DNA of 33,363 nucleotides, from NCBI GenBank assembly GCA_948466255.1, contig CAOJZV010000012.1:1-33363 (forward strand), written 5' to 3'. The notes under the pieces are model-generated. The model was not told the DNA's origin. It made no database searches and saw only the letters and a list, made by a program, of their open reading frames with translations. This DNA comes from an uncultured Bacillota bacterium. Its GTDB lineage: Bacteria > Bacillota_I > Bacilli_A > RF39 > UBA660. A program made the position numbers and the translations under genes. Numbering within the stretch: position 1 is the stretch's first letter; every line of letters begins with the position of its first letter. Shown here piece by piece: positions 13,502 to 33,363 of this stretch.

Positions 13502-13960
13502 ATGGAAAAATTTAATCGAACACTTCGAGGTTATGATCCAGATGAAGTTAATGCATTCTTAGACCAAATAATCACTAAGGTTGAACAAATGGTTGCAGAT
13601 ATCGATGAAAAAGATGCTGAAATCGAGAAATTGAAATCGCAAATTAGTGATACAAGTAGGCAAAGAGAAAAGCTTGCACAATATGAAAGAATGGAAGATA
13701 CTTTAAATAGAGCTATTATGATGGCTCAAAAAACATCTGATCAATTAAAGATAGCTGCTCATCGCGAAAGCGAAATCGTAATTGATGATGCTAAGAAAAA
13801 TGCTAATAGAATTGTAAATGAAGCATTAATGAGAGCTGAAAAAATTGAAAATGATTCAATGACTTTGAAGAGAAATGTTAATATATTTAAACGTCGTTTA
13901 AAAAATATTATTGAATCTCAATTAGAGGTTATTGATGAGATTGATAAAATACAAATGTAA
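13502..13960 (+). CDS. divIVA: DivIVA domain protein (N-terminally short)
   Basis: This 152-residue protein has the DivIVA core RGYDPDEVNAFLDQI at residues 9-23 and long coiled coils (about 24-70 and 75-150). DivIVA marks poles and septa by binding curved membrane. The frame is closed upstream by a TAG at 13475, so the usual LTPxDIHNKxF segment ahead of the RGYD motif is missing. The residue before the conserved Arg is Leu8, where B. subtilis has Phe17, the membrane-inserting residue. It may be a divergent DivIVA/GpsB-type protein. SD GAGG at 13490-13493. Confidence 0.85.
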   Translation: MEKFNRTLRGYDPDEVNAFLDQIITKVEQMVADIDEKDAEIEKLKSQISDTSRQREKLAQYERMEDTLNRAIMMAQKTSDQLKIAAHRESEIVIDDAKKNANRIVNEALMRAEKIENDSMTLKRNVNIFKRRLKNIIESQLEVIDEIDKIQM

Positions 13961-13965
13961 AACAA

Positions 13966-14176
13966 ACGATAGAGACGGTATATTATATAATTTTTTAGAG
14001 AGTTAGCGTTTGGTGAAAGCTAATAAATTGATAATATATAGATCACTCTTGATGTGTTTTTCTGAAAATAGTAGGGGAAAACGGTAACGCGTTATAGTTA
14101 TAAGTGTATAATTTATTTATAAAATAAGGTGGTACCGCGGCATAGCTCGTCCTTAAATCATAGGATGAGTTTTTTT
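13966..14176 (+). promoter_or_regulatory. Isoleucine T-box leader of ileS
   Basis: T-box AAGGTGGTACCGCGG at 14126-14140. The terminator is CTCGTCCT (14146-14153) / AGGATGAG (14162-14169) plus a 7-T run. The long AT-rich stem I carries an apical GTTAGC...GCTAA hairpin, and the candidate specifier is ATC (Ile) at 14042-14044. Uncharged tRNA-Ile should favour antitermination. I see no strong dedicated promoter; the leader may be read from divIVA. Confidence 0.93.
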
Positions 14177-14198: not shown

Positions 14199-16925
14199 AT
14201 GGAATTAAAAGATACATTATTAATGCCACAAACAGAATTTAGTATGAGGGGAAATCTTCCAGAAAATGAACAAATTCAAAGAGAAACATGGGAACAGATG
14301 GATTTATATAATAAAATTAAAGAAAAAAATAAAGGTAATAAACCTTTTGTTTTACATGATGGTCCACCATATGCGAATGGAAATATTCACTTAGGTCATG
14401 CCTTTCAAAAAATTCTAAAAGATTTTATTAATCGTTCAAAAATGATGGAAGGATATTATGTGGAGTTTATTCCAGGTTGGGATACACATGGTCTTCCGAT
14501 TGAACATGCAGTTACTAAAACCGGAGTAAACCGTAAAGAAATGACAATCGCTAAGTTTAGAAAACTTTGTGAAGAATATGCTTTAGAACAAGTATCTAAA
14601 CAAAAAGATGATTTTAAAAGATTAAATGTAATCGCTGATTGGGAAAACCCATATATAACTTTAAAAAAAGAATATGAAGCAAAACAAATAGAAGTATTTG
14701 CTAAAATGGCAAAAAAGGGTTTGATCAAAAGTGGATTAAAACCAGTTTATTGGTCACCAAGTAGTGAAACAGCTTTAGCTGAGGCCGAAATTGAATATAA
14801 AGATAGAAAAGATCCATCAATCTATGTAGCTTTTGATATAACTGAAGGAAATGATTTTGTAAAAGAAGGCGATAAATTAATTATCTGGACTACAACACCA
14901 TGGACACTTCCTGGGAACACTGGAGTATGTGTTGGTGAAAATTTAGATTATTCAAGGGTAAAAGTTGGTGATGATTATTATATCGTTGCTACTGAACTAA
15001 TTAAACCATTAATGGAAGAATTCGGAATAGAAAAATCTAGAAAACTAAAAACCTTCAAAGGAAAAGATTTAGTAGGAGTTATTTATAAACATCCATTTAT
15101 GGATAGAACTAGCCCAGTAGTTATTGGACATCATGTAACTTTAGAATCAGGGACAGGTTTAGTTCACACAGCTCCATCTTATGGTGAAGATGACTTTATT
15201 GTTGGAAAAAACAATGATCTTTTAATGGTAAATGGAGTAGATGATAAAGGTGTATTAAATAAAGAATCAGGTATGTTTAGTGGACTATTTTTTGAAGATG
15301 CTAATAAGGAAATAACTAAATGGTTAGACGAAAATGGTTATTTAGTTAAATTAAAATTTATTAAACACTCATATCCACACGATTGGAGAACAAAAGGACC
15401 AGTTATTTTTAGAGCTACTAAGCAATGGTTTTGTAGTGTTGATAAAATAAGAGAAGATTTACTAAATGAAATAGATGAAAAAATTAAATTCCATACTTCA
15501 TGGGGGAAAACAAGAATTTATAATATGATTAGAGATAGAGGAGATTGGTGTATTTCTAGACAAAGAGCTTGGGGAGTACCTATTCCGATTTTCTATGCTG
15601 AAGATGGAACAGAAATTGTTGACTATGACGTTATGATGCATGTTTCAAAATTATTTAGAGAACATGGTTCAAATATTTGGTTTAAAAAGAAAGCTGTAGA
15701 TTTACTTCCAAAAGGTTATACAAATGAACATAGTCCAAAAGGTAAATTTACAAAAGAAACTGATATTATGGATGTATGGTTTGACTCTGGTTCATCATTT
15801 GCTGGAGTACTTCAAGAAAGAGGTATGAATTTTCCAGCTGATATTTATCTAGAAGGTTCAGATCAATATCGTGGTTGGTTTAATTCGTCATTAATTTGTG
15901 GTATGGCCAATGATGGAAAAAGTCCATATAAAGAATTACTTTCAACAGGTTTTGTATTAGATGGTAAAGGCAATAAGATGAGTAAGAGTCTTGGTAATGT
16001 TGTACAGCCTATGAAAGTAGTATCTAAACATGGTTCAGATATTTTAAGACTTTGGGCTGCTAGTGTAGATTTTACAGAAGATGTAAGATTTAGTGATGAA
16101 TTACTTAATCAAGTGAAAGAAAGCTATCGTAAAATTAGAAATACTTATAGATTTATGCTAGGAAACTTATTTGATTTTGATCCTAAAAAAGATAAGGTAT
16201 CTTATGATAAAATGCCATATTCTGATAAACTAATGATGATTCAGTTAAATGAACTTACAAAAAAAATTAGAAATAGTTATGATGATTATGATTTTGATGA
16301 AATTTATAAATTAATTAATAATTATATTTCATCACTATCAAATTTCTATTTAGATTTCACAAAAGATATTTTATATATAGACAAGGCAGATTCATTAGAA
16401 AGAAGAAGTGTACAAACAGTATTATATGAAACTCTTTATGCACTTATAAGATTAATGGCTCCAATACTTCCATATACAAGTGAAGAAGTATATAAATTAC
16501 TTCCGGGTACAAAAGAGGAATCAGTTCATTTAGAAAACTTCCCAGATGTAATTATGTATAAAGATAAAGAAGAAATAGAAGAAATGTGGACAGTATTCTT
16601 TAGTATCAAAGATGACGTATATAAAGCTTTAGAGGAGGCTCGTAACGATAAGATTATTGGTAAATCATTAGAAGCTAAAGTATTTATTAATTTAAGAGAC
16701 GAAGATAAAGAAGTATTAAAACCAATTTTACCTAATTTAAAACAATTATTAATTGTATCTGATGTTGTAATAACACCAAATGAACTTAAGAAGTATGATT
16801 ACTGTGAAGTAGACGTTCAAAAATTTAATGGTAAAAGATGTGAAAGATGTTGGAATTATTTTGATGAAAGATATATCATTGATGATATTTGTCCAAGATG
16901 TCATGAAGTAATACAAGAAGACTAG
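14199..16925 (+). CDS. ileS: Isoleucyl-tRNA synthetase
   Basis: This 908-residue class I synthetase has the HIGH motif as HLGH (residues 64-67), KMSKS at about 593-597, and the CP1 editing domain between them (WTTTPWTLPGNTG near 229-241). A C-terminal zinc-binding pair CERCW...CPRC occupies about 880-903. Length and order are standard for bacterial IleRS of the Bacilli type. SD AAGGAG. Controlled by the isoleucine T-box and ended by its own terminator. Confidence 0.97.
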   Translation: MELKDTLLMPQTEFSMRGNLPENEQIQRETWEQMDLYNKIKEKNKGNKPFVLHDGPPYANGNIHLGHAFQKILKDFINRSKMMEGYYVEFIPGWDTHGLPIEHAVTKTGVNRKEMTIAKFRKLCEEYALEQVSKQKDDFKRLNVIADWENPYITLKKEYEAKQIEVFAKMAKKGLIKSGLKPVYWSPSSETALAEAEIEYKDRKDPSIYVAFDITEGNDFVKEGDKLIIWTTTPWTLPGNTGVCVGENLDYSRVKVGDDYYIVATELIKPLMEEFGIEKSRKLKTFKGKDLVGVIYKHPFMDRTSPVVIGHHVTLESGTGLVHTAPSYGEDDFIVGKNNDLLMVNGVDDKGVLNKESGMFSGLFFEDANKEITKWLDENGYLVKLKFIKHSYPHDWRTKGPVIFRATKQWFCSVDKIREDLLNEIDEKIKFHTSWGKTRIYNMIRDRGDWCISRQRAWGVPIPIFYAEDGTEIVDYDVMMHVSKLFREHGSNIWFKKKAVDLLPKGYTNEHSPKGKFTKETDIMDVWFDSGSSFAGVLQERGMNFPADIYLEGSDQYRGWFNSSLICGMANDGKSPYKELLSTGFVLDGKGNKMSKSLGNVVQPMKVVSKHGSDILRLWAASVDFTEDVRFSDELLNQVKESYRKIRNTYRFMLGNLFDFDPKKDKVSYDKMPYSDKLMMIQLNELTKKIRNSYDDYDFDEIYKLINNYISSLSNFYLDFTKDILYIDKADSLERRSVQTVLYETLYALIRLMAPILPYTSEEVYKLLPGTKEESVHLENFPDVIMYKDKEEIEEMWTVFFSIKDDVYKALEEARNDKIIGKSLEAKVFINLRDEDKEVLKPILPNLKQLLIVSDVVITPNELKKYDYCEVDVQKFNGKRCERCWNYFDERYIIDDICPRCHEVIQED

Positions 16926-31016: not shown

Positions 31017-31114
31017 AGCATAGATATTGTATCTATGTAGGAATACTTACGGTTTAAATGTGAGTGTTCTGACCAAAACCCCCTGAAGGAGCCACTAGAG
31101 CTCCTCTTTTTTTT
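31017..31114 (+). ncRNA. Candidate small RNA 2 (about 98 nt)
   Basis: A near-consensus promoter starts transcription near 31017. The RNA opens with a hairpin CATAGATA / TATCTATG, extended by GTATT / AATAC around it. It then has GGTTT / AAACC arms (31051-31055 and about 31076-31080), a C-rich segment ACCCCCTGAAGGA (31078-31090), and a terminator AGGAGC / GCTCCT (31087-31092 / 31100-31105) with 8 T. No ORF longer than a few codons is present. It is not recognisable as SRP RNA, 6S, tmRNA or a known riboswitch. The region 30965-31274 holds only this unit and the next promoter. Confidence 0.6.
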
Positions 31115-31220: not shown

Positions 31221-31268
31221 TTGACATTTTTTGCAAACTGATTATAATAATTGTAGTGAGTGAGGGGG
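31221..31268 (+). promoter_or_regulatory. Promoter and SD of the cohesin/dockerin gene
   Basis: TTGACA (31221-31226), a 16-nt spacer and TATAAT (31243-31248). SD GAGGGGG (31262-31268) precedes the ATG at 31275. The AT-rich 31115-31220 shows nothing else. Confidence 0.8.
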
Positions 31269-31274
31269 AATATC

Positions 31275-33363
31275 ATGAAAAAAATAATCACTTGTATGAT
31301 TACTTTTTTTGCTACATTTGTAATGGTTATAAATGGTGCAAATGCTTTAGAAAGTGTGAATGCATCTTTAAGTACAAATCACAATGATTTATATAGTGGC
31401 GAAGAGGTAGAAATTACATTAAAATTTGATGGATTTAATGATATTAAGAAAGGAATTAATGCTTATAAAGCTACTTTAGATTACGATGAAAATATTTTTG
31501 AACAGGTGTTTCAAAATTCTTTTGCGTGTTTAAATGGTTGGGAAGAAATTCTTTATAATCCTAGTAATAAAGAATTTGTATCTATTAATAGGGTTGGAAT
31601 AACAAAACCAGGCGCTGTAGCAAAAATTAAACTTAAAGTAAAAGAAGGGATGAAGCCTACTAAAACAAGTATTAAAGTTAGAGATGTTGTGGTATCTGAA
31701 GGTAAAAAGGATATTGAAGTTAAAACGGCTACAAATAATTTAAATATTGTTACAACTCAATCTTCTATTCCTTCTGAGAAAGATCCTAATAATACTTCTT
31801 TAAATAAACCTGTTAATAATGTTGTTTTAGGAACTGCTCCAAGAAGTAATTCATTTTTAGACAAAGCTCTTAAAGTTTCTGATGATATTGCTGAATTAGA
31901 AAAACAAGAAAATTTGGGTGAAGATAATATAACTTCTATAACAGATAATTCCGATAAATCTATAAAAGATTCTAAGGAAAAAGAAACAAAAAAAATTAAA
32001 AAAACTTCACATAATTATTTAAATTTATTTCTTTTGTTTTTAATAGAACTTATAATTTTGTTTGTTATTATATTTATAGTTAGAAAAAGAAAAGAAAATA
32101 ATGGTGGTAAAGACGATATTGATTTTTCGGATAAACAAAAGAAATTTATGTCATTTTTCATTATAGGTATTTTATCATTTGAATTTGTTGGAACTGTTTT
32201 TGCAGCAACAATTGATTTTGCTCAAAAAGGTGAATTAAACGACGATGGTGAAATAAATTATGCAGATGTTAATTTATTACAATTACATTTAATTGATTTG
32301 AAAGAAATTGAAGATGATAAATTAGAAAATGCGGATATTAATAGTGATGGTAAAATTACAGTTACGGATTTAACTTTATTAATCCAAAAACTTGAAAAGA
32401 CATTAGATTATGAAGTTACATTATCTGATTTGCGTTTTGATAATTATTATCCTAATAAAAATGAAGATGTAACATTAAAATTTGATGCATCTGTTAGTTT
32501 TGGCGCATATATTGAAAAAGTTGTTGTTAATGGAAAAGAATATGATGTTATTAAACAAAATGATTCTGATGAATATGGCATGATGGTTAATGTTGGTGAT
32601 GCCTCAGGTGTTAAAGAATACAAAATTACGGAAGTTATTTTAAACAATGGTAAGACAGTTTCGGTAAATAATTCTGTTAAACTTGATGTATTAAAAACAA
32701 AACCTAGTATTAGTAATTATAGTGTGACTGAAGATGATTCTGATGTTGCAAATCTTAAAGCAAATATATCTTTTGATTTTACTGATAATGATGATAGTAT
32801 GACATCTGGTGTTATTACGGTTAAAAATGATAAAGACGAAGTTGTAAAAGCTGGTATAGTTAAAAAAGGGAAAAATACTTTAGAAGTTCCAGTACAAGAT
32901 GGAAAAATGTATAAAGTATATGTTTCTGTAAAATATGATTTAGATACTAATGAATTAAAACAAGAGAAAGATAATACAGGTACTTTATCATTTGAAAAAG
33001 ATTTACGTATAGTAATTGAGTATGATTTTGAAATTAGTAATATTAAAACTTATAAAGATGATAATATGAGTACTACTTTTGAAAAGAAAGAACCAATTCA
33101 AATTCGCTTTGAAAGTTCAAATTTATCTAATTATGAACCTACTGAAATTACTGTAAATGGTACAAATTATACAGTTAAAAAAGAAGGGAATATCTATGTT
33201 GCAGATACTGTAAGTTTTGATGACTTAGGTGATAATAATGTTACTGTAGAAAGCGTTACTCTTGGTAATGGTAAAAAGTTTGAAATTAAAAAGGATAATA
33301 AGTTAAGCGTTAAAATTATTAAGAGAAAACCTAGTGCTGGTGATATAACTTGGGTAGAAAATG
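31275..33363 (+). CDS. Secreted membrane protein with cohesin-like, dockerin and Ig-like regions (3' end outside window)
   Basis: The frame stays open to the right edge (696 codons visible). Order: signal peptide (1 to about 25, ending NGANA); a cohesin-like beta domain (about 26-160, with SGEEVEITLKFDG and GAVAKIKLKVKEG); an acidic Ser/Asn/Lys linker; a membrane helix (about 249-271) ending RKRK; a short Lys/Asp loop; a second hydrophobic segment (about 292-312) that looks like a signal peptide with an AxA-like end. A type I dockerin follows (about 319-375) with two calcium-binding repeats, NDDGEINYAD and ADINSDGKITVTD. The rest is Ig-like modules of the 'VVVNGKEY...EVILNNGK' type, seen again as 'ITVNGTNY...SVTLGNGK'. 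Topology puts cohesin and dockerin both outside. Role: surface scaffold or adhesin (inference). Confidence 0.8.
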   Translation, partial: MKKIITCMITFFATFVMVINGANALESVNASLSTNHNDLYSGEEVEITLKFDGFNDIKKGINAYKATLDYDENIFEQVFQNSFACLNGWEEILYNPSNKEFVSINRVGITKPGAVAKIKLKVKEGMKPTKTSIKVRDVVVSEGKKDIEVKTATNNLNIVTTQSSIPSEKDPNNTSLNKPVNNVVLGTAPRSNSFLDKALKVSDDIAELEKQENLGEDNITSITDNSDKSIKDSKEKETKKIKKTSHNYLNLFLLFLIELIILFVIIFIVRKRKENNGGKDDIDFSDKQKKFMSFFIIGILSFEFVGTVFAATIDFAQKGELNDDGEINYADVNLLQLHLIDLKEIEDDKLENADINSDGKITVTDLTLLIQKLEKTLDYEVTLSDLRFDNYYPNKNEDVTLKFDASVSFGAYIEKVVVNGKEYDVIKQNDSDEYGMMVNVGDASGVKEYKITEVILNNGKTVSVNNSVKLDVLKTKPSISNYSVTEDDSDVANLKANISFDFTDNDDSMTSGVITVKNDKDEVVKAGIVKKGKNTLEVPVQDGKMYKVYVSVKYDLDTNELKQEKDNTGTLSFEKDLRIVIEYDFEISNIKTYKDDNMSTTFEKKEPIQIRFESSNLSNYEPTEITVNGTNYTVKKEGNIYVADTVSFDDLGDNNVTVESVTLGNGKKFEIKKDNKLSVKIIKRKPSAGDITWVEN

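What the first reader, a model, noticed from the sequence alone, without database searches (positions are those of the whole stretch)
31275..33363. One polypeptide carrying both a cohesin-like domain and a dockerin, split by two membrane segments
Cohesins and dockerins are binding partners, normally on different proteins. Here a secreted cohesin-like domain, a stop-transfer helix, a short cytosolic loop and a second signal-like helix precede a dockerin with two calcium repeats and Ig-like modules. Both ends would face outward, which would allow self-association, chains between cells, or recruitment of other surface proteins. The second half looks like a separate secreted protein joined in frame.
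Basis: partly seen in the sequence, partly recalled or inferred. Interest (0 to 1): 0.8.

Follow-up and report, generated by a model that had tools for sequence, protein, structure and literature searches.

The report
Surface protease with built-in cohesin–dockerin latch
A tiny-genome gut bacterium makes a giant surface protease (of the family that includes the pneumococcal IgA1 protease) that seems to carry its own molecular latch: a membrane-held "socket" (cohesin) in front of the enzyme and the matching "plug" (dockerin) on the enzyme itself, so that after being cut free the enzyme could be held on the cell that made it.

Summary
Cohesin and dockerin both score above Pfam's cut-offs; the cohesin's predicted fold matches C. 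perfringens cohesins. But the ORF is cut by the contig end. Near-identical and other complete orthologues show it is the first quarter of a ~2,900-aa M26 (IgA1-protease/Zmp-type) metallopeptidase. The missing C-terminus lies at the start of contig C4 of the same genome. Its odd layout (signal peptide, ectodomain, TM1, short loop, second signal-like helix, enzyme) is the M26 family's known N-terminal anchor. What is new is the cohesin in the anchor and a dockerin at the enzyme's start. In Clostridia MAGs the same parts are two adjacent genes (SP-cohesin-dockerin; SP-dockerin-M26), so the "second signal-like helix" is a true signal peptide there. Two fused relatives carry LPQTG before TM1, 59 residues ahead of the putative signal-peptidase site (56 published for M26 IgA1 proteases). 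Best reading: signal peptidase cuts the chain, the cohesin stays in the membrane and recaptures its own protease. AlphaFold's pTM indirectly supports cohesin–dockerin docking within the chain. Cleavage and binding are untested. Cell-to-cell chains have no support. New variant of a known kind.

The parts
31087..31105 (+). intrinsic terminator-like hairpin closing the upstream (recG) unit
   Evidence: 0.1 expected in shuffles
31221..31248 (+). sigma-70-type promoter, TTGACA-16-TATAAT, 12 of 12
   Evidence: consensus match only
31262..31268 (+). Shine-Dalgarno-like GAGGGGG
   Evidence: sequence
31275..33363 (+). 5' part (696 aa) of the M26 protease precursor gene, cut by the contig end
31275..31346 (+). 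signal peptide 1 (residues 1-24, ANA|L)
31383..31739 (+). cohesin domain (residues 37-155)
   Evidence: Pfam; fold: best match 2vo8, Z 13.5, rmsd 2.0 over 129 residues
32031..32081 (+). TM1, stop-transfer helix (residues 253-269); occupies the place that follows LPQTG in relatives L051/L052
32082..32153 (+). K/R-rich cytosolic loop (residues 270-293)
   Evidence: sequence
32154..32204 (+). TM2 / second signal peptide (residues 294-310), putative signal peptidase I site VFA|A
   Evidence: homologous to the true N-terminal signal peptide of the split Clostridia proteases
32235..32393 (+). type I dockerin, two calcium loops (residues 321-373)
   Evidence: Pfam; PDB sequence match to 4fl4_A, E 1.6e-7; recognition helices conserved with split forms
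32412..33362 (+). start of the beta-rich (Ig-like) repeat region that leads to GLUG and M26 domains; continues off the contig
   Evidence: 98.7% identical to residues 6-702 of the 2,843-aa orthologue; repeats match within it; no Pfam family reaches its cut-off here

Best explanation
The ORF encodes the anchor and enzyme N-terminus of a giant M26-type metalloprotease made as one chain. Signal peptide 1 exports the cohesin, TM1 stops in the membrane, the short loop stays inside, and the second hydrophobic segment works as an internal signal peptide that exports the rest. Signal peptidase I cuts after VFA (310|311), which frees the ~2,550-aa enzyme from the membrane. Its new N-terminus is a dockerin, and the membrane-held cohesin from the same chain, or from a sister molecule on the same cell, binds it and keeps the protease on the surface non-covalently. 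Shown here by computation: the domain order, M26 identity, the cohesin fold, conservation of the layout, and a two-gene version in Clostridia. Inferred: cleavage at the second site, cohesin-dockerin binding in cis, and retention as the purpose. The substrate is unknown (host glycoproteins or immunoglobulins by analogy only).
For: M26 identity: M26_N E 2e-35 in the full-length orthologue, M26_C 4e-19, ZmpB/A/C/D models 3e-47 to 1e-32; the C-terminal 728 aa sit at the start of own contig C4, 94% identical to the orthologue. Two-gene version: nine Clostridia loci with adjacent SP-Coh-Doc and SP-Doc-...-M26 genes, in which the segment homologous to TM2 is an ordinary signal peptide (VIYA/AIYA). 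Putative cut site: 12 of 12 fused clade-A members by eye, 10 of 12 by rule. LPQTG precedes TM1 in L051/L052, 59 residues before the site; published cleavage in M26 IgA1 proteases is 56 residues after LPXTG (PMC9637739). Dockerin recognition helices are conserved between fused and split proteases and differ from the adaptor's own dockerin and from the other dockerins of this genome. Split-gene cohesins are 42-49% identical to the window's. AF2 of residues 26-389: pTM 0.61, above the 0.37-0.45 that one placed domain would give. Signal peptidase I is encoded in the genome.
Against: No binding or cleavage data. The signal-peptidase motif is not above composition expectation on its own (7.3 of 12 by shuffling). 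TM2 of clade A has an E or Q in its hydrophobic core, unusual for a signal peptide. Clade B (10 fused loci) lacks the motif yet keeps a cohesin and a degenerate dockerin, and a member still models with pTM 0.70, so docking does not require cleavage. No coordinates or PAE were available to inspect the interface. Own genome is 68% complete and the gene is broken over two contigs.
Confidence: 0.55

Rival explanations
1. No cleavage: the two helices stay as a membrane hairpin, the protease is anchored by TM2, and the cohesin clasps the dockerin beside the membrane as a structural clamp.
For: Clade B, ten loci, has no signal-peptidase motif at the end of TM2, and a clade-B model has pTM 0.70. TM2 of clade A carries a conserved E/Q in its core.
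Against: In clade A the TM2 end is VFA/AFA/IYA-like, and in Clostridia the same segment is a stand-alone signal peptide. M26 IgA1 proteases are reported cleaved 56 residues after LPXTG (PMC9637739).
Confidence: 0.2
2. Trans assembly: the cohesin recruits other dockerin proteins (the glucosaminidase-dockerin on C4, the 2,167-aa protein on C1), and the M26 dockerin sits in another cohesin (C1 484-aa cohesin-TM), making a small cellulosome-like surface complex.
For: Own genome has three cohesins and three clear dockerins plus one weak; the C1 genes 4160-2167-484 look like such a chain. In Clostridia the adaptor has its own dockerin and one locus (L048) has a following cohesin-TM gene.
Against: The dockerins of this genome differ at recognition positions. 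G010 and G023 have the glucosaminidase-dockerin with no detectable cohesin or M26, and G005 has the M26 protein without it. G034 has a single Pfam cohesin, the one in this protein.
Confidence: 0.2
3. Homotypic chains between neighbouring cells or molecules, cohesin of one binding dockerin of the next.
For: Both domains should face outward (topology).
Against: AF2 probably places both domains together within one chain (pTM); nothing in the comparative data favours trans over cis.
Confidence: 0.05

Closest known systems
M26 IgA1 protease / ZmpA-D of streptococci and Gemella (Pfam PF05342+PF07580)
   Same: Giant zinc metallopeptidase, GLUG, M26_N and M26_C regions; N-terminal signal peptide, sorting/TM segment, further TM segment, then the enzyme; two relatives keep LPQTG at the same spacing (PMC2225412, PMC9637739)
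   Different: Cohesin in the anchor and dockerin at the enzyme start; no G5 domain found; no LPXTG in the window protein (KIKKTS in its place)
Clostridium perfringens cohesin (X82)-dockerin exo-enzymes (NagJ, NanJ and relatives)
   Same: Nearest cohesin structures (2vo8, 2jh2, 2w1n) and nearest PDB profile match; single cohesins used outside cellulosomes
   Different: There cohesin and dockerin join different glycoside hydrolases; here they flank a membrane hairpin in one M26 protease chain
Cellulosomes and mucinolysomes (Limousia, PMC12997984)
   Same: Type I dockerin like those of CelS or Xyn10Y; dockerin-bearing peptidases are known
   Different: No multi-cohesin scaffoldin found; the cohesin is encoded in, or next to, the enzyme it would hold

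Membership tests
M26 metallopeptidase (IgA1 protease/Zmp) | M26_N and M26_C domains | tested here: met
   Orthologues; own genome M26_C at C4:3-464. The window itself stops before these domains.
M26 metallopeptidase (IgA1 protease/Zmp) | HExxH with a third Glu ligand | tested here: met
   HExxH in 24 sequences checked; Glu at +20 in 16, at +18 in six others by reading, not seen in L043/L046. Own copy of this stretch lies in the assembly gap.
M26 metallopeptidase (IgA1 protease/Zmp) | N-terminal signal peptide plus TM pair | tested here: met
   also in class relatives without cohesin (L094, L097)
M26 IgA1 protease, Streptococcus type | N-terminal LPXTG | tested here: not met
   KIKKTS in the window; LPQTG only in L051/L052
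M26 IgA1 protease, Streptococcus type | G5 domain | tested here: not met
   no G5 match in G034, G005 or G035 proteins, while L094/L097 have it
M26 IgA1 protease, Streptococcus type | cleaves IgA1 hinge | not testable with these tools
   needs an assay
Cohesin PF00963 | sequence above cut-off and cohesin fold | tested here: met
Dockerin type I PF00404 | two calcium loops, score above cut-off | tested here: met
Cohesin/dockerin pair | binding to each other | tested here: inconclusive
   pTM 0.61 only
Cellulosome | multi-cohesin scaffoldin with many dockerin enzymes | tested here: not met
   three single cohesins, three clear dockerins plus one weak in a 68% complete genome

The most novel reading that the evidence does not exclude
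A self-latching polyprotein: one gene encodes membrane socket and plugged enzyme, signal peptidase separates them, and the cohesin-dockerin pair rejoins them on the producer's own surface; a non-covalent replacement for, or forerunner of, sortase anchoring in M26 proteases.
Probability: 0.5. Interest if true: 0.75.

Novelty: new variant of a known kind. Interest (0 to 1): 0.6.

Why it matters
M26 proteases carry their anchor at the N-terminus and are cut behind it, so how the enzyme then stays on the cell is an open point of the family. Here a known high-affinity type of pair sits exactly across the cut, and nature supplies one-gene and two-gene versions, which makes retention directly testable with small purified domains. 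It also takes cohesin–dockerin pairing into tiny-genome gut Bacilli and to a private, in-chain use.

Tried and rejected
Assembly artefact or frameshift fusion: rejected (one frame in 21 loci, 98.7% identical orthologue). Internal start making a separate enzyme: the Met before TM2 is not conserved (L037, L040 lack it) and has no strong Shine-Dalgarno sequence. Neighbour of the glucosaminidase-dockerin as a hidden cohesin: hhalign probability 0.5%, not shown. Sortase loss as the reason for using a cohesin: sortase genes are present in all 44 genomes of the genus. "Dockerin decay where TM2 is not cleavable": clade B has an insert between the calcium loops and a shortened second helix, but the model still looks packed, and clade B is one lineage, so this is only suggestive. 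Direction of fusion or fission: the tree does not resolve it. M26 region by single-sequence phmmer against PDB: no match. The window cohesin alone found no PDB relative by phmmer; its alignment did. Literature: no paper found joining M26 and cohesin/dockerin; the paper on the pneumococcal N-terminal domain (Bender and Weiser 2006) is not held.

Full report
CHECK. The reading frame begins at ATG 31275 behind a Shine-Dalgarno-like GAGGGGG (31262-31268) and a 12-of-12 sigma-70-like promoter (31221-31248), downstream of recG and a terminator-like hairpin. It runs to base 33363, the last base of contig C12 of a 1.05-Mb, 68% complete genome, so the protein is incomplete. Residues 37-155 match Cohesin and 321-373 match Dockerin_1, both above Pfam's cut-offs. 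An AlphaFold model of residues 26-389 from 19 sequences gives pLDDT above 90 for most of both domains. Its cohesin part matches C. perfringens cohesins best (2vo8, Z 13.5, rmsd 2.0 over 129 residues), and a profile of 21 cohesins finds the same NagJ cohesins in PDB by sequence.

WHAT IT BELONGS TO. An orthologue in another genome of the genus (G035, 98.7% identical over 696 residues) reads on to 2,843 aa before its own contig ends; G034 and G005 have complete 2,886-aa and 2,620-aa proteins. They carry GLUG motifs (G034), Peptidase_M26_N (E 2e-35 and 3e-21) and Peptidase_M26_C (4e-19 and 3e-29), and G034 matches NCBI's ZmpB, ZmpA, ZmpC and ZmpD models (E 3e-47 to 1e-32), though far below those models' cut-offs for full pneumococcal proteins. 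In the window's own genome the start of contig C4 (bases 3-2186) encodes the C-terminal 728 aa, 94% identical to G035. So the finding is the first quarter of an M26 metallopeptidase gene broken by assembly.

THE LAYOUT IS THE M26 ANCHOR. [quoted passage not shown] M26 IgA1 proteases are described as cleaved 56 residues downstream of LPXTG (PMC9637739). M26 proteins in other families of the same class show SP1, a short ectodomain, TM1, TM2 and a G5 domain, with no cohesin or dockerin (L094, L097). In two fused relatives of the window protein, L051 and L052, LPQTG stands just before TM1 and the putative signal-peptidase site IYA|A follows 59 residues later. The window protein has KIKKTS at that place, so sortase processing is not indicated for it, although sortases exist in the genus. 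That the enzyme part of the pneumococcal protease may stay non-covalently attached is from memory of Bender and Weiser 2006, which could not be read here.

ONE GENE OR TWO. A scan of 85,000 genomes gave 32 related loci. Eleven are fused like the window (clade A), ten are fused in a distinct clade B, ten are Clostridia with the parts in two adjacent genes (in nine the second gene can be read), and one is a free cohesin with an MPQTG-TM tail. The Clostridia pair is SP-cohesin-dockerin (310-330 aa, no TM) and SP-dockerin-Ig-M26 (2,650 aa and more), domains Pfam-confirmed in L048, where a third gene is SP-cohesin-TM. The segment that is TM2 in the fused proteins is the N-terminal signal peptide of the second gene, ending VIYA or AIYA. 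The dockerin of the protease has the same recognition helices in fused and split forms (NYxDVxLLExHLI and ITVTDLTLLIQKLE), whereas the adaptor's own dockerin (INDLAQxKLxLI) and the other dockerins of the window's genome (SSADYLMIRDYIM, NAIDALKVVNHII) differ. The split cohesins (42-49% identical) are closer to the window's cohesin than those of clade B (21-34%).

MECHANISM. Putative signal-peptidase sites at the end of TM2 are seen in all 12 clade-A proteins (window included) by eye (10 by a fixed rule) and in 9 of 9 split proteins, against 0 of 10 correctly placed in clade B. Shuffling shows that composition alone would give about 7 of 12, so the motif is supporting, not decisive; its weight comes from the homologous true signal peptide in Clostridia. 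Signal peptidase I is encoded. The AF2 model has pTM 0.61; a calculation shows that one well-placed domain among 364 residues would give 0.37-0.45, so the cohesin is probably placed against the dockerin and helix pair. A clade-B member gives 0.70. No coordinates were available to look at the interface. The best-supported account is therefore cut-and-recapture in cis, with an uncut clamp as the main rival and trans recruitment next. Trans recruitment of the glucosaminidase-dockerin is weakened by two genomes (G010, G023; 89% and 91% complete) that have it with no detected cohesin or M26 protein.

CLADE B. Its dockerin carries an insert between the calcium loops and a shortened second helix, its TM2 lacks a cut site, and in L061 neither domain reaches Pfam significance. 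This fits a state in which the enzyme stays tethered by TM2 and the latch is relaxed, but clade B is one lineage (100/100), so it counts once.

NOVELTY. No paper in the held library was found to join M26 with cohesin or dockerin. Dockerin peptidases (PMC12997984) and cohesin-bearing exo-enzymes of C. perfringens are known. The new element is the pair placed across the processing site of an N-terminally anchored protease, with one-gene and two-gene versions.

Noticed in passing
own genome C1:82326-102856 (L013, L014), minus strand: Three adjacent genes look like a cohesin/dockerin chain: 4,160 aa (cadherin-like repeats, weak C-terminal dockerin), 2,167 aa (N-terminal cohesin, C-terminal dockerin), 484 aa (cohesin, TM).
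   Followed up: partly
own genome C4:55884-57176 (L015:5885-7177): 431-aa SagB-like glucosaminidase with a strong C-terminal dockerin, conserved in several genomes of the genus, followed where visible by a ~450-aa SP...TM protein whose N-terminal domain is not a detectable cohesin.
   Followed up: partly
L048:18955-19788: SP-cohesin-TM gene right after the Clostridia M26 gene: a possible membrane anchor for the Coh-Doc adaptor.
   Followed up: partly
G404 contig C1 (L104, L105): Reported 26,554-aa open frame is a run of masked N, an artefact.
   Followed up: yes
G082 C3 and G102 C1: M26_C proteins with 7-8 in-frame TGA codons, so probably genomes that read TGA as Trp.
   Followed up: no
window 13957-14157: T-box leader (RF00230, 116 bits) ahead of the 908-aa ORF at 14199.
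   Followed up: no
window TM1 and TM2 (32031-32081, 32154-32204) and relatives: Both membrane helices carry a conserved E or Q in the hydrophobic core in most clade-A members, perhaps pairing the helices.
   Followed up: no
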